From NCBI GenBank assembly GCA_024811115.1, contig JAKOGH010000097.1, positions 1 to 64,000 on the forward strand: a DNA stretch of 64,000 nucleotides, read 5' to 3'. A program made the position numbers and the translations under genes. Under the pieces are notes generated by a model. The model saw nothing but the letters and a program-made list of their open reading frames with translations, had not been told where the DNA came from and made no database searches. The first letter of the stretch is position 1. Each line of letters opens with the position of its first letter. This stretch comes from Terana coerulea (Eukaryota; Basidiomycota; Agaricomycetes; Polyporales; Phanerochaetaceae). Shown piece by piece: positions 7,061-54,378 of this stretch.

Positions 7061-9607
7061 CTAATGGCCATTCGCTACCTTCTGCACGAGTACGAACGCG
7101 CTGGCAGCCCGCATAACTGCCTTCAACCCCGATGCAGCGATATCTGTGTCGCTCGATACCCCCACGCCGTCTGTCGCTTACCCGCACCGTCGTACGCCAG
7201 CTCGACGTACGAGACAGCCTGTACGTCCGTACCCTCGCCGATGGAATGCTCCGCATATTCTTTAATCGAGAGCGTGCCCTCGATCTGCGAATTCAGCACC
7301 GCCAGGATTGAGGATAAGACACCGCTGCCCTCCGCCCGCAGCTTGCGCGTCTCGCCGTCATAGAGGAGCTCGACCTCGAGCGCCTTGCGCCCGCCCTCAC
7401 CGACGTTGTCGAGGTTGAAGCGCACGAGCGATATGCGCGATGGGACGGGCGTGCCGTAGTGGTACGTCGTGCGGAAGAGCGCGATGAGGTCCGAGTACGA
7501 GATCGCGCCGCCCGGCTCGCGCGCTGCGCGCTGCACGACTTCGAAGAACGCGGTCTGGAAGCGGCGCGGCAGCTCGAGCTGCAGCGAGTTGAGGATCGCG
7601 GACGCGACGTCCGCCTGGCCCGACTTTGCGCTGAACCCGACGCTCAGCTTGAGCTCCGGCAGGGCGCGGTCGCCGATCGCGAGGTTGACGGCGCTGAGCA
7701 CCGCGCGTAAGCCGGACCCCGCGATGTCGGAGTCGATACCCACGCCCCACCAGGATTCTGTGGACTTGCGGGCGTCCTTGACGTCTTGGCCACCGCGGAC
7801 GACCTCGACATACGACGCAGCCTTGACATTCGAGCCCTCGCCGATGGCATGCTCCGTATATTCTCGGACGCCGAGATCGATCTCGAGATGGGTTCGGAGA
7901 GCGTCCAACAGAGCGGATAAGGGACCGTTGCCGTCGCCACGGATGACCCGTACCGTACCGTCGACAGAGATGGTGCCATCGAACAAACGCCGCTCGTCCG
8001 CCGGCTCCTCGCCTTCGGTTGTGTTGGAGTCGGCGACAGGCTCAGATGATATTTTGAAGGACTTGAGCACCAGACGACCCTCGTATTTGGAGCCGCCGAA
8101 GCGGTAAGTCGAGCGGAAAGCAGTCGTAATGTCCTCGACAGACATCTCGCGCGCTTCCCTATCCGCAATGTCCTGGATGACCTTGTAGAACGCGATCTGC
8201 ATCTTGCGGGGAATGTCGAGACCAAGATGCTGCTGGATGAGATATGCGATGCCGCCTTTGCCGGACTGCGAGTTGACGCGGATAACGGCCTCGTAACTGC
8301 AGCCAAGGTCTGCTGGGTCTACCGGCAGGTACGGTATATCCCACCATTGGGGCTCTCCGGTCTTTGCAGCTTCTGCATGCCGTTGCCGTTGTGCCTCGAA
8401 GCCCTTCTTGATGGCGTCCTGGTGTGAGCCAGAGAAGGCCGTGAAAACGAGCTCCCCGGCGTACGGGTGACGGGGGTGAACAGGGAGGTCAGTGCAAGCG
8501 GTGACGGTGTCGATCACCGACTGAATGTCACTGAAGTCGAGGTTGGGATGGACACCTTGAGAATACAGATTGAGCGCGAGAGTCACGATATCGACATTCC
8601 CCGTCCGTTCACCATTGCCCAGAAGGCAGCCTTCGACACGGTCTGCACCTGCAAGCATGGCTAGTTCGGCGGCAGCGACGGCCTGCCCTCGGTCATTGTG
8701 GGGATGCAAGCTGACGATGATCTTCTCCCGTTCCGTGATTTCGCGGCAGAAGTGCTCTATCTAGAGCGTGTGATGAGAGCAGCGCTAGATGGAGGCGCAT
8801 ATATGCAGCTCACTTGGTCCGCGTAGTGGTTTGGAGGTGCAATCTCGACTGTTCCAGGCAAGTTGAAGGTAATGCGCTCATCGCCCGGTCCAGCCTTTCC
8901 CCATGCTGCCTTCACGGCCTCACAGACCTCGATGGCAAACTCCGGTTCAGTCTGGCTGAAGGCCTCCGGGCTGTATTCGTATCGGAATATCGTGCCTGTG
9001 CGAGCAGTGCATTCCTCCGTCAACTGACGAACGATTTTGGTGTGCTTTACAGCAAGAGCAATCGTCTCCTCCTTCGAGTTGCGGAAGACGACGTTTCGGA
9101 AACAGGGTGAGGTTGCGTTATACATATGGATAATCGCTTTCTTCGCACCAGCTACGCTGTCCACAGTGCGTTTGATCAGATCTTCTCGGGCAGGTGTCAA
9201 TACCTGCAATAGAGTTAGCAGAACGAACCGTGAAGCGTCTTCGGCACTTACCTGCACCCACACATCGTCCGGTATTTGGTTGCCTTCGATCAGCCCTCTC
9301 ACGAAGTTGAAGTCGGTTTCACTGGCAGCAGGGTATGCGAGCTCAATCTCCTGAGCCCACACTGGACTATAGTGTGGAAGAAGCGCGTCTTTGCTCAACC
9401 GTCATCGGGTTTGCCAACGCCTGGTTTCCATCGCGCAGATCGGTCGAGAGCCATGCCGGTGGTGTGCGCTGCACTTTCGAGGGCCATTGGCGATTAGGCA
9501 GGTCAAGAGGTGTGTACGGCTTGTACTTTTGGGACGGATCTGAGCTATATCACAGTGTCAGTCTCCGTAATGCGGCGAAAGGGATACAGAGCATACAGCA
9601 TGGGCAT
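7061..9607 (-). CDS. LEU4: 2-isopropylmalate synthase with duplicated C-terminal module
   Basis: The enzyme condenses acetyl-CoA and 2-oxoisovalerate, the first step of leucine biosynthesis. The catalytic HMGL-like barrel shows [47 protein letters not shown] and the metal-binding HPHNDRG, then [21 protein letters not shown] spliced intron lies near 8763-8816. The C-terminal part is unusual. A subdomain plus LeuA allosteric unit (about 8290-7690; [10 protein letters not shown] ... [20 protein letters not shown]) is followed by a second divergent copy (about 7650-7061; [14 protein letters not shown] ... [20 protein letters not shown]). Total length is near 790 residues against about 620 in yeast Leu4. 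Three single-base losses break the frame: 9390-9392, 9350-9351 and 7159-7163. With the last repaired, the stop is at 7061. The first exon is short and its boundary is uncertain (ATG at 9607 or 9601). Confidence 0.92.
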
Positions 9608-10460: not shown

Positions 10461-13400
10461 TCAGCGCGCTTCTCGCGCTTGCTGCTGCAGACGTTGCACT
10501 TCCTCGACGACCTCGGACATCGTCGGCCGGTCTTGGGGGTCTTGTGCCCACATCCGATCCATGAGCTTCACAATCTCCGGGCACCACCGCTTTTCTAACC
10601 CACGGACAGAAGGCCTGCATGCAGACATGAGGGACGGCTTTCGTAGAGGGCCAGGGGATTACGTACCGTTGGTGCTTGGCCCCAACCTGGTCGTAGATTG
10701 CGTGCTCATTCATGCCTTCCCAAGGAAACTTCTTCTCGGGTACATGCCATTGCAAAGTCTCCCAGTAGACCATCGCCAGCGAAAATACATCCACCTTATG
10801 ATTGTACTTCGGATGGGCCGTCCAAAGCTCAGGCGCTTGCCAGTTGACGGTACCAACCAGGCTCCGCACCATCGAGCGTGTCGACTGCTTGACCTTCGCA
10901 AGCCCAAAGTCGGTGATCTTCGCCACACCCTTGGAGGTGATGAGAATGTTGGAGGACTTGCAATCACGGTGGATAACAGACGGCTTCCTCATATGCAGAT
11001 ACTCTAGTCCACGAGCGATATCGAGCATGATGGAGAGCTATCCGCTATGAGATGTGAATACATTGGACAGTATGGTTCGACTTACCACGCGGTACAGTGT
11101 CGGCGCCGGCACGTTGCGGATGTAGTCGAAGAGATCACCATTGGAACAGAGCTCGCTAACAATCATGACTGGCGTGTCGCGCGGGTTGGTGGGGATGCTA
11201 ACACCAAGCTGACAGAGACAAAGCTTTAGTGATTACAACAACGAAGCGACGGAAGCACTTACGAAGCGAACAATGTTGGGATGGTCAAAGTCTCCTAACA
11301 GCTTGAGCTCCTTGACATCCACTACAGCGGGTTTAGCGCTATATTGCTGATAGTAAGAAGACGGGACTTACTGGCACTGAGCTGCCCGCGGAACTCTGCG
11401 ATTGCGACCTTCCTACCTTTCAGTTTGCCGATGAACACGTCCTTGAACCCACCACTACCAATCTTCTCAAGTTTGGTGAGCTTCTCCGGGGGGATCTCCC
11501 GGTCGTCCAAGCCCAAACTTTCCAGATCTAACTCTAGCTCGGGTTCCGCCTCCTTGTTATGCGGCGTTAATGGCGGGGTGCGGGGCTCGTCGAGGTGCAC
11601 TCGCTCTGAGCGCTCCAGAACTGGCCTATCATCTGCGCTCCGAGTGTTTCGGCGACGTGGACGTGACGTTGAGGGCGGGCGGGCTGTACCAGTCGATGAC
11701 GGTGACGACGCCATGTCGCTGGAATGCTTGTTCCGCCACTGCAGCAGCGCTTCCGCAAGCTGAGGTTTCGTGCCCGACACCTGGAGATCGCGGTGTTCAC
11801 ACATCCGAACGAGGTCATCTCGACGTAGCCGCACGAGTGACTTTGCAGTGGCGACTGCGAGGTCAACTGTCGTGAAAGTGTGGTTAATTCAATGTCGGGT
11901 ACAATATGGGAGATAATTACCATCGTCCTCCATGACTTCTTCGGCATCCTCAGCGTCGTCCACCTGGATATCTTCGTCGTCATCCTCATGGTCCTCAGCT
12001 TCAAGATCGATACTCGCAGCATCTTGATCCACAGATTCGGTGTCATCGATTTCACCCTCAGCATCCTCTTCGGTGAGTTCCTCGTCCGCGTCTGCGTCCA
12101 CATCGTCTTCCCCAACCACCTTTCCGTTCCGCAGAACGCGAGGTTCTACTTGGTCGTCTTCGTCCTCTTCCTCCTCCACACCTTCCTCCTCACTATCGTC
12201 CCTGATCGTCTCGCAATCATCGTCCATCTCCTGTTCCTCTTCTTCCTCTTCCTCATCCCCATTCAAGCTCTCCTGAATGTCCACGCTCTCGTCATCGCTA
12301 CCTTCATCGTCGCCATCATCCGGGGCCTCGTCTGCGATAGTCTGCCTCGGGCGCAGCCGCCGTTGCAGAGGCGTCCGTCTCCTGTTTGCCTTTGGTGTCG
12401 GCGACCCCGCCAGCTGGTCCAGTTCCTCGTCAGCTGCCCCCGCGTCGTCGGCATCACTGTCCACAAGCTCGTCCTCTTCTTCCTCTGTGTCGTCCTCCCT
12501 CAACGACCCGACTCGACCCTTTGCTTTACGCATTGGCGTCACTCTCCGTGAGAGATCGACCTCGCCGTCGACTTTCCCTCCACCGTCATAGCTTGACTGA
12601 CTCAAGACCCGGGTTTTCTCTCCTTTGCTGCGCAATCGTCTTGGACTTGGAGTTGCTAAACCGATGGTTTCCTCAAGCTCCGTTAGATCAGTTAGATCGC
12701 TTTCTTCATCAGGCTCTGGCAAAGCGGCCACTTGAACATGGTCATCAAATTCAACTTGCTTTGCTTTCCCCTTTCCTTTGTATGATGAAGTCGACGCTAT
12801 GGGTACGACGATGTTCTCGTTAGAGCATTTCCGTGAGCGTGTGCGAGTAGCGGGTGGCGAGAAAGCAGTTGAAGAGGTGGAAGTCGTAGGGGAAGTACGG
12901 CTTGAGCTAGCATGACTTTGTGTACGGCTGTACATCGCTGGTCGATTAGCCTGTAACCCACAAAATCAACACATGCACGTACCGTCTCGGCGCAGTAGCT
13001 GGCACTAGCCGTGGCTGCGAAGCGACTCTTGAGGTTGAGAGCCTCCCAGGATGCTGAAATGACGGAAGAGAGTAGCACCTATCCGCCGCTGCAGGCCTAC
13101 GCTTCCCAGTCCCGAGGTCATGCACAGTGTTCCGTCTTGACAGACCGTTCCTAAACCGATTGCCGAAGTCCGTCTCTTCACCGCCCGCGACATTTCCACC
13201 ATCCGACGAGTAGTCGCTGGATCCACTCGAGCGAGCATCAGGAGGAGAGGACGGTGGAAGAGAAGCGACATCGTCTCGCGAGTCAATGATACAATCGACG
13301 ATCTCAGGTTTCGTGAGAAGCTCTGCGTCTTCGGTCAGCCCGGCAGCGGTATAAATGCGGACGAGCTCCTCCTTGCGCAAACGCAGCAGTTGACGACGTG

Positions 13401-13707
13401 GTGCTTCATTGATCAAGAAGTTGTCCGCTACGGTATACAACTGATAAACCCCAGCTAGAAGACGACGATGACAGGAAGACTCACAGGAATCTGCGTTGTC
13501 CCCGTCGTCGCTCGCCTCCGAATCCGATATCTCCCAACGCGAATGCCCGTCGACGTCCATAGAGCTCGTGAGCTCATCCTCACTTGAGTCCAATCCCCTG
13601 CGCCTCTTCACCCGCTTTCCAGAACGCGACCGGCCATTTGCTAGCGCGTTCTCACTACCGCTCACAGCACGCTTCCGTTTCGACCCTGTCGGGACGGCAT
13701 CGTGCAT
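10461..13707 (-). CDS. SAP-domain protein kinase, TKL-like, with WNK-like lysine placement
   Basis: This is a multi-exon gene; 5' to 3' the product has four parts. First comes a Lys/Arg-rich nuclear-type N-terminus ([17 protein letters not shown]). Second is a helix-loop-helix SAP-like unit ([20 protein letters not shown], about 13390). Third is a long acidic region (about 12500-11900) ending in a clearer SAP domain ([18 protein letters not shown]...[11 protein letters not shown], 11834-11745). Fourth is a kinase domain with glycine loop [16 protein letters not shown], catalytic loop [26 protein letters not shown] and a last exon ending at 10461. The usual VAIK lysine is alanine (VAIAEF), while a lysine sits in the glycine loop as in WNK kinases. 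HRD and DFG are intact. The start is uncertain: ATG 13707 is used, but open frame continues upstream to about 14.0 kb, possibly through another frame break. SAP domains bind DNA, so a nuclear or chromatin role is inferred. Confidence 0.85.
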
Positions 13708-14251: not shown

Positions 14252-14459
14252 CGTCGGGGATAACGCTTCCGCCCGGGCCGGCACACCGTGAGTAGTGATA
14301 TAAGTATTAAATGCGTTGCTTACTTGCCAACGAATATGTTCGAGTCCAAATGTCAACGTGAGTATGCTATTACACACTGTTATACACGACCTTACGATAC
14401 ATTCTTCAGCGATCAGATCTCCGTCTTGGTCAAATATTGAGGGAAGTAAATGGGCGACC

Positions 14460-16987
14460 CTACAGCTTGGCGACAAGTTTGCGCAGAACAACTTTCTGTA
14501 TCTTCCCAGTCGATGTTTTCTGTCACCAGCCTCTCAATATAACTCACAACAGGCTGGATGTTACGACTTACAGGCAGCTCCTCGACAATCTGTACCCACT
14601 CAGGGCACGCGAAGCCAGGCAGGCGCCCTTTCGCATGGCTTTTGAGCTCGCCTTCGAACTCCCCATGACGGCCTTGCCACTTGGAAGCTGCATCATTCTT
14701 CAAGATGACGAAGGCCATAGCACGCTCGCCCCATTTTGGATGTGGGCGGGCTATGACAGTTACTTCTAGCACATCCGCATGTGCAGCAAGCTCTGACGGA
14801 GGATCAGTTTGCGCTGCCGTTGTTTACGCAGGGTAACGGGCCATTCACCTTGCTCAATCGCCAAGCTCGACGCATTCTGAATGTGAATGTGAGTGAGTCT
14901 CTAATTAAGAGGTCACCATACTAGCTCACCTCTCCACCAGAAATGATGATATCTTTGCTGCGGTCTTGGATTGCAACGTACCCATCCGGGTGTACCACGG
15001 CTAGATCCCCGCTGTGGAAGTATCCACCCTCGAATGCTTTCTTCGTCGCCTCCGGATCCCTGAAGTACTACGTCGCCGCTCATCAGGATTATCATCAGAA
15101 TCGACCACTGCAACTAACCTCCTTCATGGCAATATTCCCCCTCATAACGATCTCGCCAACCGTCTTTCCGTCCTGTGGGACGTCCACTAGCTCGGCGCCT
15201 TCCTTTCCTTCCTCAGCCTGGACTACTACGCGTGCAGCGTCCGACGTCAGGAAGCTGAATCCTTGTCGTGCGCTATATCGAGCTCGCTCCTCAAGGCTCA
15301 AGTCCTTCCAAGATGGTTGGGCGTAGGATTTCGTGAAGGGTCCGTACGTCTGAAATCGATCAGTAAAGGTGGATAATGCCGAAATAAGAATGAGTACCTC
15401 GGTGAGTCCGTATACATGCACAGGCTGGATACCAATGCTCTCGAGGTCTCCGATGAGCTGCGCCGTAGGAGCCGAGCCAGCGATAATGGCACTGATGGTT
15501 CGCGGTACAGGCTTTGCTTCTGGCGCGCTGACAATACCAATCTGAAATAGGATGGGTCACGACTAAGCCCAGTGCCCAGGAGCGATTCACTAACTTGGAC
15601 GGTTGGGGCCGCGCAATAATGGCTCACGCCTGAGTTGAGGAAGTGATACCAGATCATGGAATGATTTACGGTGCGTAGGGTAATCTATCACTTTGTTTGT
15701 ATGCATACCGTTACCAATAATTGACTGACAGGGCTTTACCTGGGTGGCGAATGCGACTGTAATAGCCCAAGGATAAGTCCAGCCGCATGCATGGAACATA
15801 GGCAAAATCCTACAAGACTATCAGTATGTGCGCCCACGTGAAAGCTCACGAAGCGTGTCACCAAAGATATACGGATTCTGGAGCCAACCTTGTCTCATAT
15901 GCATTAGCGACCGCTGCAAGGTACGAGCCTATACCAGGGCGGACAGTTAGCATAGATCACAAGGCACGACGCTTACGCTTTAGCTACTCACCACGCAGTG
16001 TGGTAATCACTCCTTTTGGCTGCTCGAAGTAAGTTTGTTATCGTTGAATATTAAAAGAGCAGACTAACCCGACCTGTAGTTCCAGAGCTACACAAATGGC
16101 AAATTAACACCAGCTCAGGACAGCATGAGCTAGAACATACGTATAACAGAGCGCTGCGGCAGCGTTCTCATCTGCTTCCCACTCTAGTCCTGCCCAACCC
16201 CTCTCGTGACTAAACCGCCGCCCACCGCCGAGAAACTCTTCGTACGGATCTCCCGGTCTTCCAGTGTCATTCGAAACTATGATACGGGTCTCTACACCTT
16301 CCACGAGGTGTGCGTACTCATAGTCAACAATGATGAGCTTTGCACCACTATGCTCGAGGATGTAAGCAACTTCGGGGGCTGTGAGTCGCGTGTTGATTGG
16401 ACAGATGACTGCCCGTGCCGCGATTACGCCTTGGTGTGCATCTTGCCACGACACATCGTTTATGATTTTGCGACACCGGCATTAAGCTGAGCACCCACCT
16501 GCTATGACCGGACTAAGGGAATTTGAGCGGGGTCTGGTGGAAGCAGTCTGCTCTACTAGTACTCACGAGTTAGGAGCGACAACAGCAACTCTGTCTCCTG
16601 GTTGAATTCCAGCCTCGATGAGAGCATACGCGAGATTCTGTATTCGCTGAGCCCTTAATGCACGTTGTGAGCTTTAAAGTAGAAGGTTTGAACAGGTGAA
16701 CAATATACCACACGGCGTAGGTGTAAAATACCGGATGCTTCACGTCAGAATGAGCAACAGCGAGCTTGTCAGGGTATATTTGCGCCGCGCGCAGCAGAAA
16801 GTGTAGTGGATTCTAGAGCAGACCTGTGTTGAGTTGCAGTATGAGAGAACACATTCGGCACTGCACTGACCAAAGGCTGGATGTTCACGGCAAGACCTTT
16901 GGGCTGTCGTAGCTGTAGATTCGCGGATCCTGTACCGGCAGGGGGTATGCTAGCTGGAGTTGGCTGAAATTTCGAGAGAGCAGACAT
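14460..16987 (-). CDS. AMP-dependent acyl-CoA synthetase/ligase, peroxisomal
   Basis: This enzyme activates a carboxylic acid to its acyl-CoA through an acyl-AMP intermediate. The chain runs from [16 protein letters not shown] at 16987 through [30 protein letters not shown] and the P-loop-like core SGTTGRPKGV split by an intron. It continues through [63 protein letters not shown] and the catalytic-lysine C-terminal motif KTSTGKIQK. About ten short introns interrupt it. The last residues are VAKL, and AKL fits the type 1 peroxisomal targeting consensus. This places the enzyme in the peroxisome, probably feeding beta-oxidation. The substrate is unknown; it resembles the short/medium-chain AAE type more than the very-long-chain type. 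Confidence 0.92.
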
Positions 16988-28469: not shown

Positions 28470-30618
28470 CTAGAATTTGAAATCCTTCTCTTTCCTCCTC
28501 TCCCGGTCCCTGTCCGCCTTCTGTTTCTTGCTTGCCATCTCCTTGGCTATCATGTCCGAGAAATCTTCCCGTCCATTCGCACCTGGGACACCAGCAGAGC
28601 CACGTGAATGCTGGTCGTACCGGCGACGCAGCTCGTCTTCGGACAAGCCCTCCAACTCCGACGCATCGATGGAGATATCCACACCATTGGCCTTGCGCTG
28701 TAGGAGAAAACATTAACGTTTGCGCATGAGGCACGACAGAGCATTACACACGGACCTTGGTTCCCCGCTCTTCACCAAGCACAGGTATCGCGGCATTCGC
28801 GTTTGCGACGGCACTAACGTCGTAACCGCGCTCGCTGCCCATAAGGCCACGGACAGCCGTCTGCTTTTCCGGCACAACCTGGTACAGTGACCTCGGACCA
28901 GTGTCTTCGCTGACGGCGCGCGTCGCAGTTTTCCGGAGTTCAAGGAAGTCGGGTGTCTCGAGGCCTCCAGCGACCGTTGAGACGACGCTGGTCATGCCTG
29001 ACGGCGTTTCCAGACCAGATGGCGTCTGAAGGCCGTCTGTTGGCGCTGGCTCGGCCATTTCTTCGTCGTCCGACTCCTCCTCTTCGGATTCCGATTCTTC
29101 CTCTAGAAACGAAGATGTGAGAAGAATGACAGGCACATCAATCGTCCAAACTGTCACGTACCTTCTTCTGGCTCGAGCTCTCCCCATGGCGTGCGATCAA
29201 CAGGCTCACCACCCAACTGACCGGAGCAGTCAGTAAGATGCCGGAGGGGGTAATGAGGGTATACTCACATCAGCATCATTGGTCTTTGGCAGTACACCGA
29301 AGACATCACCGTACAACGGCCGATTATACTCATCAAGAGGGGGCTTACCCCAGCCACCCGGATGGAAACCCCATTGGGCACTGCACTCAACCGTCAGATT
29401 AACTGGATCTCATCGGACCGACGACCAACTCACCCTTCGGGAATCGGAGCATTCAGGCCAGGGATCCGGAGCGTGGGATAGCTGGGAGGCGGTCCGAACC
29501 GCTGCATACTGATCAGCCATGGTGGAGGTGCAAGGGGCGGGATTGACAATGCTTCAACGAGCTCGGGCGACAAATCACCGGGACGTTTGTGCTTGAGTTG
29601 TGTCTCAAACTCCTTGCCTTCATAATACCTGTCAGAGATACAATCAAGTGACCGTGCGTACAGTAGGAAAAATTGTGAACATACATTTCACCAAATCCGG
29701 TGACATTGGGCTTCGTCATATGCTTGAAGAAAGCGTCGTGGAGCTTTTGATAGTCAATGTCAACCTTACCCATCTTCGGTTGAACACGTTCACGGGTCTT
29801 GGCTTTCAGCGACATGCCGGCCTCCTTCTCTTTCGCCGCATCGCGCATGGTGGCAATCCCAGTGTCGGCAATGTACGACGGAAGCTGGAAAGGGGGCTTC
29901 TCGATACCACGCTTGCCTTGAAGGTAGTCACGCTTCGCACTCCAGTGTGCAGGTATAGGAACAGTGTTGCGGTAGCTCTTCATGTGAAGGAGGAGACGAG
30001 GGTCAGCGGCGGTGACATCTGTCCACTCGACGACTTCAGGCTTCTTGACCAACTGCTTGAGTTCAGCAACCGTAAGTCTGTTCATTTTGCGAGCCTTCTT
30101 CTTGGACAAAGGCTTCTTCTCTCCTTCGGCTTCGGAGTCGCCCTCGGACTCCATGTCGTCGTCCGAGTAGATAACTTCGCCTTTCGAACGGTCAGTGCCG
30201 AGTGTCTGTTGTAAGGCAGGCTAGGTCAATTTCGATATTGACGAAGAGACGTGAATGACGCACCGTTTCGGATTCCGGGGGAGCCTGGAAGCGTGCAAAG
30301 ACGTCGGAGAATGCTTCGAGAGCAGCTCCTTTGACTTCCAACTGCTCAGACACGTACTCGACATTCATAGCCACATCCTCATCCTCTTCTTTGACATTCC
30401 GCGACTCGGCTTCGTCGATGTCCTAGTAGTATGGTCAGTGAATGTATATATGCGCGAAGATTGAGACGCACTGCCGTTGCAGTCTGCTCTACTTTCTTCT
30501 GCTTAGCCTTGAGCCGTCGTAGCTGGTTTTTGGACTTGATCTTGGCATTTCCCTTGACACCATTCAGTCCGTTCACGCCATTTGTCAACGTAGTCGCGGT
30601 CTCCACGGTTGTGGCCAT
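28470..30618 (-). CDS. CUS1: Splicing factor SF3b subunit 2 (SAP145/Cus1)
   Basis: This is a core subunit of the SF3b complex of U2 snRNP, which holds the branch-site duplex. From ATG 30618 the protein has a lysine-rich start (KIKSKNQLRRLKAKQKKVE) and an acidic linker. The DUF382 core follows: KPEVVEWTDVTAADPRLLLH, SYRNTVPIPAHWSAKRDYLQ, GKRGIEKPPFQLPSYIADTG and IATMRDA. The PSP proline-rich domain follows (AQWGFHPGGWGKPPLDEYNR and PLYGDVFGV), then PWGELEPEE, a Glu/Ser acidic tract, SLYQVVPEKQTAV and a basic end (KKQKADRDRERRKEKDFKF). Seven or eight short introns split it. It is divergent from eIF4A, so two RNA-processing/translation genes share a promoter region. Confidence 0.95.
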
Positions 30619-30961: not shown

Positions 30962-32492
30962 ATGTCAACGTGAGGACGCCATCTGATCAAAATGGGGAGG
31001 AGATTCTGACTGTAGGCTCGTCTATGCAGAGAACAACTCCAAGATGTTCAGGAGAACGAGATTGAGTCCAACTGGAACGAGATTGTCGACAAGTGCGTTA
31101 TACGGCTAGTACGCAGCGGAATTGGTCACTGAGATACTGTTCTGCAGCTTCGACAACATGGACCTGAAGGCCGAGCTCCTTCGCGGTATCTACGCCTACG
31201 GGTGAGTGCGTTGTCCTGCAGCCCATATTGCTGTGTATTTATCATCATCTAGTTTTGAGCGCCCCTCCACTATCCAGCAGCGCGCTATCGTCCCCGTCAT
31301 CAAGGGACACGATGTCATCGCGCAGGCGCAGTCCGGCACTGGCAAGACCGCCACCTTCTCCATCTCCATCCTGCAACAGATTGACCCATCCATTAAGGGG
31401 ACCCAGGCCCTCATTCTTGCGCCCACCCGTGAGCTTGCCCAGCAGATCCAGAAGGTTGTTGTTGCCCTCGGCGACTACATGAACATCGAGTGCCACGCTT
31501 GTGTCGGCGGCACCAACGTCCGAGAGGATATGGCCAAGCTTCAGGAGGGTGTCCACGTCATCGTCGGCACTCCCGGTCGCGTCTACGACATGATCAACCG
31601 CCGCGCCCTCCGCACAGACACCGTCAAGCTCTTCTGTCTCGATGAGGCCGATGAGATGCTGTCCCGCGGCTTCAAGGACCAGATCTACGAGGTCTTTCAG
31701 CTTCTCCCTCAAGACACCCAGGTTGTTCTTCTCTCCGCCACCATGCCCGCGGATGTGTTGGAGGTGACGAAGAAGTTCATGCGTGACCCCGTGCGTATTC
31801 TCGTCAAGCGTGACGAGTTGACGCTCGAAGGTATCAAGCAGTTCTACATTGCTGTCGAGAAGGAGGAGTGGAAGCTCGACACTCTCTGCGATCTGTACGA
31901 GACCGTCACCATCACCCAGGCTGTCATCTTCTGCAACACCCGCCGGAAAGTCGACTGGTTGACCGAGAAGATGCACGCTCGCGAGTTCACCGTCTCCGCC
32001 ATGGTAAGCTTCCCTGAATTTATCAAGCGGAAGACAGATGAGGTACTGACGCACTACCTAATCAGCACGGTGATATGGAGCAGAAGCAGCGCGAGGTTCT
32101 GATGAAGGAGTTCCGTTCAGGATCTTCCCGTGTCCTCATCACCACGGATCTGCTCGCCCGTGGTATTGACGTGCAGCAGGTGTCGCTCGTCATCAACTAC
32201 GACTTGCCCACAAACCGGGAGAACTACATCCACCGTATTGGTCGTGGCGGTCGTTTCGGCCGCAAGGGTGTCGCCATCAACTTCGTCACCACCGAGGACG
32301 TCCGCATGCTCCGGGATATTGAGCGTGAGTACTAACATCGCGTTTGTGCTGTGCTGTGCTCTAACCGGTCCCCGAATCGCAGAATTCTACAACACCCAGA
32401 TTGACGAGATGCCCCTCAACGTCGCGTATGTGCCCCTTTACATGAGTGTATCAAGGCCCGTGCTGATTGTTTCATACAGCGATTTGATTTAG
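30962..32492 (+). CDS. TIF1: Translation initiation factor eIF4A, DEAD-box RNA helicase
   Basis: The helicase unwinds 5' leaders of mRNA as part of eIF4F. The model is join(30962..30969, 31030..31092, 31148..31201, 31253..32003, 32066..32324, 32383..32425, 32480..32492) and keeps phase throughout. The protein starts [20 protein letters not shown] and has the full motif set: Q motif ([12 protein letters not shown]), motif I AQSGTGKT, Ia [10 protein letters not shown], Ib [59 protein letters not shown], ending MPLNVADLI. The 8-nt first exon, followed by a 60-nt intron, is a common fungal arrangement. Length and sequence are normal for the family, with no breaks. Confidence 0.97.
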
Positions 32493-52665: not shown

Positions 52666-54210
52666 ATGTCAGCACGGGCGAGCTCGAGCTCCTACGACAC
52701 CTGCCGCTGGCTTTCTTCCTCCCGCCAGCCCGACGAAGGTAGCACCTCATTGCAGACGCAAGTGCACGAGTCACATTACCGAGTCGACCCACGCCAATCT
52801 TGCCCCCGACATTGTCGCATAAGTTTCAGGACGTCAGATTACCATCTGAGCTGATCGCCAGGGTACTCGACTTCATATGCGAGGGCACGGAAGTTCCCAA
52901 CTACCCGAACCAGCTCGGCACCTCGACCAAGCGCGAGCTTAGCAGCTGCTCCCTGGTATGTCGCCACTGGGCGTCGATATGCCGGCCATACCTCTTCGGA
53001 AGACTGGAAATACGCTCGCCCGAAGATGGCTCACGATTCCTTGCGCTCGTGAAAGAGAGCCACGACAAACGAGACAGCATTATCTATTACGTGGAGCATC
53101 TTGTCCTTGAGGAAAGCTTGGGAGAAGGGCCGGGTTACCCTTGGATACACGGTCTTTTCATGTCACGTCTACCTACTACGATAACTCTGCGGTTCACGTC
53201 CGTTCATGAAGGCGCGCACACGACGTTCTTCAGCGCGCTTCCGAGGCCTTTACCCAGCTCGTTACTCCGTTGTCGATATGTAGAGGTGGTCAACTGCCAA
53301 TGTCGGACCTTCGCAGACCTGGCGGCATTCATCGGTGGTGTCAATGCCGGAATTTTAGCGTCCGCCAAGTGCCACAATGTATCATGGGTCGATTCCGCAA
53401 ACCTGCAGCCGCCGGTTATCCCCAGCCTCGTCCAGAAAGCGGCCCGAGGGACACCGCTACTTGGAAAGTTTACACTCAGTCGCTGTACCGATGCTTGGCC
53501 TTTCGTGTGGCTTTTCTTTGCGACAACGCGTAGACCTGCGAGTCTCTGGCGACAAGACCGCGTGCAATTCGTGGAGGCAGAGGACCTAGCCAGCCTGTGC
53601 AGCCTTGTGCGCTTTGTCACTGGAGTCTGCATCGGCGACAGGGGCCCTCTGCAAGATGAGGGTGGGACTCATGTCAACTGCGGGGAATTTGTGCTTGAGC
53701 TGCATGGTGGGTGGCCGTATAGCGCCAGCTCCATCAGATACATGCTAACGTCAAACTATGTAGATGCGAAGTCAGAATCGGGTTCCACGCTCAGCATTCA
53801 CTGTGGGCGAGACGAAATCCTCAACCCGCTACATTGTTCGCCGAGTGTTCATTTCAACGTCTCTTCTACTGGAAGAGTTACAACCATCCGCGTCGACTAT
53901 CGTCCGAGGCACATGTCTACCAGCATGCTCACCAGCACCGAGCCACTTGATTACCCTTGGGAGGGCTTGGATGAACACGCATCCAGGTTCGGTGCAAGCT
54001 TGGAGTATTTCGATGTGCGAGCTCGTACGGTGAACACTTCGATGCAGATGGTGGTCGACTTCATCAGTCCTCGAATGCTCCCGCATGCAAGGCGCCGGCA
54101 AGTTACACTTCTACTACGAGTGTCCCGAGACCAAATGGGAATGGACAGAGTACCAAGTCGCGAGAGCACCAATCCCGGCTTCCGAAGACGTGACCGTCAA
54201 TGCGTCTTAA
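52666..54210 (+). CDS. F-box protein
   Basis: F-box proteins bring substrates to SCF ubiquitin ligases. The motif is clear: VRLPSELIARVLDFI, then CSLVCRHWASICRPYLFGRL, followed by leucine-rich-like repeats (TITLRFTSVHEGAHTTFFSA, LRCRYVEVVNCQCRTFADL, FVLELHGGWPYSASSI). The C-terminus, read in the next frame, is GKLHFYYECPETKWEWTEYQ and stops at 54210. The switch implies one extra base, most simply an A at 54089-54090. The long open frame has no ATG near its start. An upstream frame opening MSARASSSSYDTCRWLSS at 52666 would join it if one base is missing near 52740. Such single-exon F-box genes are greatly expanded in agaricomycetes. Confidence 0.75.
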
Positions 54211-54378
54211 ATGCACGCTTCGTCTGTGCCGCTGTGCGTAGTACCCTCAAACCATAACAATATGCGGTTCTATCGGAATTAAAATCCACAGACAAATATG
54301 CTCAGACTTTCATGCGACCTCGACGTTTGGATAAAAGAGAGATGATCCGTGCGCCAGTAGCCGAGGTCCTTTCACAAC

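What the first reader, a model, noticed from the sequence alone, without database searches (positions are those of the whole stretch)
11397..11460. SAP-domain kinase with the catalytic lysine moved to the glycine loop, as in WNK kinases
The glycine loop reads GSGGFKDV: its third glycine is lysine (codon 11442-11444). The usual VAIK lysine is alanine in VAIAEF (codon 11397-11399). HRD, DFG and APE are intact, so the protein should be active. This is the arrangement of WNK1 (GxGxFK with VAWCEL), whose lysine lies in the second strand. The rest of the domain is TKL-like and is joined to SAP units, so this is not an ordinary WNK. It could be a separate origin of the same trick, possibly with similar ion sensitivity.
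Basis: partly seen in the sequence, partly recalled or inferred. Interest (0 to 1): 0.82.

Follow-up and report, generated by a model that had tools for sequence, protein, structure and literature searches.

The report
Fungal kinase with a relocated lysine
An old, widely conserved family of fungal protein kinases has moved its key ATP-gripping lysine to a new place in the active site, the same unusual solution known from the salt-sensing WNK kinases of animals and plants, probably by a separate evolutionary route and perhaps without the chloride sensing.

Summary
The gene (minus strand, 13707-10461, 8 exons, 958 aa) encodes a SAP/TKL-like kinase with GSGGFK (K700, codon 11442-11444) and VAIA (A715, codon 11397-11399); HRD, DFG and APE are intact.

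It is not a local oddity. Of 203 listed family members with a complete N-lobe, 199 have Lys at the third glycine; all 203 have Ala/Ser/Cys/Gly, never Lys, at the beta3 site. They span Basidiomycota, Mucoromycota and Glomus. In a hand-picked set of 24, K700 and alphaC Glu728 are the only invariant Lys/Arg/Asp/Glu of the N-lobe.

Most likely it is an active kinase using a glycine-loop/beta2 lysine as WNK does; activity is inferred, I found no assay. Three trees place it with TKL/TK kinases, not WNK; a joint WNK clade is rejected with two reference sets (p about 0.007) but not with the third (p 0.097). WNK-type chloride sensing is unlikely: the WNK1 Leu369 site is Phe in 240 of 240; L369F activates WNK1 and L369F/L371F is its chloride-insensitive form.

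The parts
10461..13707 (-). SAP/TKL-like kinase gene, 8 exons: 13707-13485, 13427-12983, 12927-11921, 11866-11372, 11321-11263, 11208-11086, 11037-10667, 10614-10461; 958 aa
   Evidence: Hand-made gene model from GT..AG introns and open frame; orthologue P0002 of Phanerochaete sordida (951 aa), 86% identical over aa 580-958
13597..13680 (-). basic, bipartite nuclear-localisation-like stretch KRKR...KRVKRRR (aa 10-37)
   Evidence: read by eye; not tested by a predictor
13270..13389 (-). N-terminal SAP-resembling segment (aa 88-127)
   Evidence: by eye; Pfam SAP model does not recognise it, FANC_SAP E 0.034
11727..11837 (-). SAP-like unit (aa 569-605) upstream of the kinase
   Evidence: Pfam SAP at aa 571-602, E 0.003 on the whole protein, 9e-5 on the cut-out; below curated cut-off
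10500..11477 (-). protein kinase domain aa 689-946 (span includes 4 introns)
   Evidence: PF07714 156.5 bits, PF00069 150.6 bits
11442..11459 (-). glycine loop GSGGFK (aa 695-700); K700 codon 11442-11444 in place of the third glycine
   Evidence: Lys in 199 of 203 family members with complete N-lobe
11397..11408 (-). beta3 VAIA (aa 712-715); the usual lysine is A715, codon 11397-11399
   Evidence: Ala/Ser/Cys/Gly and never Lys in 203 of 203
11308..11310 (-). alphaC glutamate E728, presumed partner of K700
   Evidence: Glu in 183 of 183 and in the hand-picked set of 24; the pairing is inferred
10948..10971 (-). catalytic loop HRDCKSSN (aa 807-814)
   Evidence: HRD in 240 of 240 and 33 of 34 (the other row is cut there)
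10900..10914 (-). TDFGL (aa 826-830); F828 aligns with WNK1 Leu369 of the chloride site
   Evidence: DFGL in 240 of 240 and 32 of 34 (the other two have gaps there); position map
10825..10836 (-). APEL (aa 852-855)

Best explanation
The gene encodes a catalytically active Ser/Thr kinase of a conserved fungal family ('SAP-TKL'). The ATP-phosphate-gripping lysine comes from the end of the glycine loop/start of beta2 (K700) instead of beta3, pairs with alphaC Glu728, and leaves a small residue where the beta3 lysine normally sits: the WNK solution, reached in a TKL-like kinase. The SAP-like unit and basic stretches suggest a nuclear, DNA- or chromatin-associated kinase. Shown: sequence, conservation, presence in Basidiomycota, Mucoromycota and Glomus, intact HRD/DFG, grouping with TKL/TK in trees. 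Inferred: catalytic activity, the K700-E728-ATP contact, nuclear role, separate origin from WNK, lack of chloride inhibition.
Against: No assay; activity is inferred from residues only. Four N-lobe-complete members lack the lysine: P0170, P0185, P0222 have garbled glycine loops, P0215 reads a clean GGFQDV, perhaps a splice-junction artefact (P0272 shows an intron-like insert right after the Lys, ending in Gln) but unproven. The third AU test does not reject a WNK union (p 0.097). With the family profile WNK1 scores almost as high as BRAF (147.5 vs 148.6 bits), probably in part from the shared lysine. Parsimony gives two changes, which one gain plus reversion in TKL/TK also satisfies.
Confidence: 0.72

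Rival explanations
1. Pseudokinase: the beta3 lysine was lost, the domain no longer catalyses, and the glycine-loop lysine serves binding or stability only; the protein acts as a scaffold, perhaps at chromatin through SAP.
For: Loss of a canonical catalytic residue; no enzymology in the passages read; Pfam gives only generic kinase matches and NCBIfam only matches far under its cut-offs for orthologues P0002 and P0060.
Against: HRD, catalytic-loop Lys and Asn, DFG and alphaC Glu are kept over fungal phyla; a pseudokinase would be expected to lose some. Lysine at exactly the WNK position is the expected compensation.
Confidence: 0.13
2. Common descent with WNK: the swap arose once in an ancestor of WNK and this family (with reversion in TKL/TK), or the family is a derived fungal WNK.
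For: Two changes on the tree are compatible with gain plus reversion; WNK is the group just outside TKL/TK plus family in two trees; AU p 0.097 in the widest set; microsporidia are reported to have WNKs (PMC4280135, passages).
Against: Starred TKL/TK + family branch in all three trees; AU p 0.0074 and 0.0067; DFG not DLG; reversion would have to restore both VAIK and GxGxxG in the TKL/TK ancestor.
Confidence: 0.13
3. Sequencing, assembly or gene-model artefact.
For: Only that the gene is spliced and the model was made here by hand.
Against: Two contigs with equal scores; 199 of 203 family members agree.
Confidence: 0.01

Closest known systems
WNK kinases (WNK1-4; plant WNKs)
   Same: Lys at the third glycine of GxGxxG (WNK1 K233) and no beta3 lysine (WNK1 C250); alphaC Glu and HRD kept
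   Different: DFGL instead of DLGL, so the chloride-pocket Leu369 is Phe; SAP-like unit; groups with TKL/TK in trees
TKL kinases: plant CTR1, MAP3K12/DLK, ZAK, TNNI3K, BRAF
   Same: Best solved relatives with the family profile after an EGFR entry that scores with two domains (CTR1 174.8, DLK 165.5, ZAK 159.5, TNNI3K 151.3, BRAF 148.6 bits)
   Different: All have a beta3 lysine and a third glycine in the alignment
'TKL/TKL-ccin protein kinase' of Coprinopsis cinerea (P0060)
   Same: Orthologue by similarity, 76% identical over aa 580-958; same swap
   Different: Only an annotation label; in the four papers holding the term, the passages read do not mention the lysine; whether they mean this gene is not established
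FslK, fungi-specific kinases near TKs (PMC3937382, parts 1 and 2 of 3 read)
   Same: Agaricomycete-rich, TK/TKL-like
   Different: Described as mostly without extra domains, with catalytic residues conserved, and absent from Ustilaginomycotina, Pucciniomycotina and the two Tremellomycetes examined; the present family occurs in all three groups; lysine relocation is not mentioned in the parts read

Membership tests
WNK | Lysine at the third glycine position of the glycine loop | tested here: met
   199 of 203
WNK | No lysine in subdomain II (beta3) | tested here: met
   0 Lys in 203
WNK | DLG(L) chloride-pocket motif (Leu369/Leu371 of WNK1) | tested here: not met
   DFGL in 240 of 240: Leu369 is replaced, Leu371 kept; role of these residues from PMC7606576, passages
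WNK | Groups with WNK in a kinase-domain tree | tested here: not met
   Apart from WNK in 3 of 3 trees; AU test of a joint clade p 0.0074 and 0.0067, but 0.097 (not rejected) in the widest set
WNK | Chloride-inhibited autophosphorylation; activates SPAK/OSR1-type kinases | not testable with these tools
   needs assays
TKL group | Kinase-domain phylogeny with TKL/TK | tested here: met
   95/98, 97/99, 96/98; exact place inside TKL/TK unresolved; most reference sequences were recalled, not fetched
TKL group | Canonical VAIK lysine and GxGxxG (usual, not strictly defining) | tested here: not met
SAP domain proteins | Match to Pfam SAP | tested here: inconclusive
   SAP at E <= 0.1 in 15 of 16 long members scanned (window; nine; P0250, P0253, P0255, P0257, P0270 of the six), all under the curated cut-off; none in P0176. 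PF02037 is precomputed for P0146, P0155 and P0254 but not for most listed rows
FslK | Membership of the FslK clade | not tested
   no FslK sequences were at hand

The most novel reading that the evidence does not exclude
An anciently convergent, widespread fungal WNK-type active site in a DNA/chromatin-associated kinase, where the cavity freed by the missing beta3 lysine binds some other regulator (an anion, osmolyte or metabolite) and makes the kinase a nuclear sensor.
Probability: 0.12. Interest if true: 0.88.

Novelty: new variant of a known kind. Interest (0 to 1): 0.68.

Why it matters
WNK is the textbook case of a relocated catalytic lysine, and it has been suggested that the relocation permits chloride binding (PMC7606576, passage). 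A second, old and widespread family with the same relocation, but with the activating Phe at the chloride site, would be a natural control: it asks whether the swap is about ion sensing at all, and what else it buys. It also warns that fungal kinases scored as lacking the lysine need not be pseudokinases. The family is present in experimentally tractable mushrooms such as Coprinopsis cinerea (P0060).

Tried and rejected
Artefact: rejected. Pattern search for GxGxFKxV in the genome: 16 hits against 21 in the reversed control, useless alone. A close VAIK paralogue in the same genome: none found; the next kinase by score is 33% identical (C530) and one of its frames reads LGIDVAIKEV. Direct measurement of K700-ATP geometry: model coordinates are not given to the Python box, so only secondary structure was used. 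WNK1 was not among the 50 listed matches of either fold search, which excludes nothing.

Literature: of ten searches, searches returned no paper. From the others I opened twelve papers: parts 1 and 2 of 3 of PMC3937382, and found passages only of PMC4718504, PMC7586955, PMC5353636, PMC3682881, PMC4082614, PMC5604158, PMC5346417, PMC7606576, PMC7751435, PMC10890143 and PMC4280135; the remaining listed papers (PMC3591445, for example) were seen only as listings. None of what I read reports a relocated lysine in a fungal TKL kinase. Subscription papers and preprints are not held, so this is no proof of novelty. PMC4123527 (the chloride structure) is not held.

The first splice choice for exon 3 broke the frame; another acceptor that keeps the frame was taken. 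This touches only the region between the two SAP-like segments, not the kinase domain.

Rows dropped before counts: of P0001-P0240, 57 with incomplete N-lobe were not counted at the two lysine sites; of P0241-P0274, 13, and the plant protein P0274 is left out of the 203. Each homology search lists only the best 120 of 4356, 3791 and 6863 hits, so all counts describe listed rows. Alignment A1 (61 rows) and the set of 24 were picked by hand for complete N-lobes; the odd rows P0215, P0170, P0185 and P0222 are in neither, so invariance there is partly by selection. Tree 2 left out P0174; tree 3 also left out IRAK4. The AU groups were named after the first tree had been seen.

Full report
What is there. 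The finding lies in a minus-strand gene. Using GT..AG introns and the open frame I obtained eight exons (13707-13485, 13427-12983, 12927-11921, 11866-11372, 11321-11263, 11208-11086, 11037-10667, 10614-10461) and a 958-residue protein with one terminal stop. Pfam finds a kinase domain at 689-946 (PF07714 156.5 bits, PF00069 150.6) and a sub-threshold SAP at 571-602. The glycine loop is GSGGFK with K700 at 11444-11442, and beta3 is VAIA with A715 at 11399-11397, exactly as reported. [13 protein letters not shown] and APEL are intact. The genome holds the gene on two contigs, C82 and C811, with equal match scores; the next kinase by score is only 33% identical.

Family-wide conservation. A search with aa 580-958 listed 120 relatives, 73-87% identical; the named ones are Agaricomycetes (taxonomy by recall). 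All 120 have [16 protein letters not shown] and APE. A kinase-only search added Dacrymycetes, Tremellomycetes, Pucciniomycotina and Ustilaginomycotina. In an alignment of 61 of those 120 rows, picked by hand for complete N-lobes and without the odd rows named below, the lysine is invariant. Over all 240 proteins of both searches, 183 have a complete N-lobe; the pair (glycine-loop residue, beta3 residue) is K/A 122, K/S 49, K/C 5, K/G 3, and there are four exceptions: P0170, P0185 and P0222 with garbled glycine loops, and P0215 with a clean GGFQDV. AlphaC Glu is 183 of 183; HRD and DFGL are 240 of 240.

A third search from a divergent Favolaschia copy reached Mucoromycota (Gongronella, Backusella, Zychaea, Dichotomocladium, Mucor) and Glomus cerebriforme. 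Of its 34 new proteins 21 have a complete N-lobe; 20 have the relocated lysine (beta3 residue G 11, A 5, C 2, S 2), and the one exception is a plant ACT-domain kinase with the ordinary arrangement. HRD reads in 33 of the 34 and DFGL in 32, the others having gaps there. Altogether 199 of 203 N-lobe-complete family members carry both changes, and none has a beta3 lysine. A SAP match at E <= 0.1, under Pfam's cut-off, was found in 15 of 16 long members scanned, including four Mucoromycota/Glomus proteins; the exception is P0176 (Meira). In the trees the Mucoromycota/Glomus members form the sister clade of the basidiomycete ones, so, assuming vertical descent, the swap and probably the SAP linkage predate that split. 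Ascomycota did not appear among the listed names; with 120-row lists this is no proof of absence.

Why it should be active. Among 24 hand-picked diverse members the invariant residues of aa 687-746 are G695, G697, K700, G705, A713, E728, L732, H737, N739 and G745: the only Lys/Arg/Asp/Glu are the relocated lysine and the alphaC glutamate, which is what one expects if they form the usual salt bridge. The model of orthologue P0122 (pLDDT 92-96 in this region) begins strand beta2 at the homologous lysine, as in WNK1, where the lysine comes from beta2 (PMC4718504, passage). Activity itself, the lysine-ATP contact and the substrate remain inferred.

Relation to WNK. With the glycine-loop and VAIK columns masked, three maximum-likelihood trees put the family with TKL/TK kinases and WNK outside (95/98, 97/99, 96/98). 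Forcing family plus WNK into one clade is rejected with the first two reference sets (p 0.0074; p 0.0067) but not with the third, broader one (p 0.097). Several reference kinases sit on long branches, and most references were recalled. The trait needs two changes. Two gains is the simpler biology, but one gain with reversion in the TKL/TK ancestor has the same count. By family-profile score the best solved relatives are an EGFR entry (two domains added together), then CTR1, DLK, ZAK, TNNI3K, BRAF and WNK1; WNK1's high place is probably in part due to the shared lysine, and with the single sequence no WNK is among the 60 rows shown.

Chloride. In WNK1 chloride sits on the amides of Gly370/Leu371 with Phe283, Leu299, Leu369 and Leu371 around it; L369F raises autophosphorylation and L369F/L371F is described as chloride-insensitive (PMC7606576, passages; also PMC5346417, passages). 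In the five family members mapped, position 283 is Phe, 371 is Leu, 299 is Ile (a gap in Tremella) and 369 is Phe; DFGL holds in 240 of 240. The family thus naturally carries one of the two substitutions that blind WNK1 to chloride. That other anions or ligands use the freed space is not excluded.

Biology. SAP-like unit, basic stretches (KRKR...KRVKRRR) and a long acidic region (84 Asp/Glu in residues 381-560) suggest a nuclear role; this is inference. A 'TKL/TKL-ccin' kinase of Laccaria bicolor was isolated in a yeast transcription-activation screen and listed as an unconventional activator with nuclear localisation (PMC5604158, passages); that paper itself warns of false positives from a vector-borne nuclear signal. 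One of Lentinula edodes has a phosphoserine that drops in a blue-light comparison (PMC7751435, passage), and one of C. cinerea is down-regulated by lithium chloride (PMC10890143, passage). Whether any of these is the orthologue of this gene was not established.

Verdict.

Noticed in passing
window 7126-8760, minus strand: Downstream neighbour: 2-isopropylmalate synthase-like open frame (HMGL-like, IPMS_D2, LeuA_dimer; the LeuA dimer domain matches twice)
   Followed up: no
window 14416-14823, minus strand: Upstream neighbour ends with an AMP-binding enzyme C-terminal domain
   Followed up: no
window 29516-30220 (-) and 31206-32099 (+): DUF382 (an SF3b-type splicing protein domain, by recall) and a DEAD-box helicase next to each other
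   Followed up: no
window 52743-54254, plus strand: 504-codon open frame with a weak F-box-like match under the cut-off
   Followed up: no
P0272, and fragments P0188, P0202, P0214, P0228: P0272 has an intron-like insert exactly after the relocated Lys, ending in Gln before DVY; the fragments begin with ...QDVY at the same place, which suggests an intron there and false Gln readings; P0215 may be another such case
   Followed up: partly
kinase domain aa 716-732: Basidiomycete members have a beta3-alphaC stretch about 5 residues shorter than Mucoromycota members, which could restrict alphaC movement
   Followed up: no
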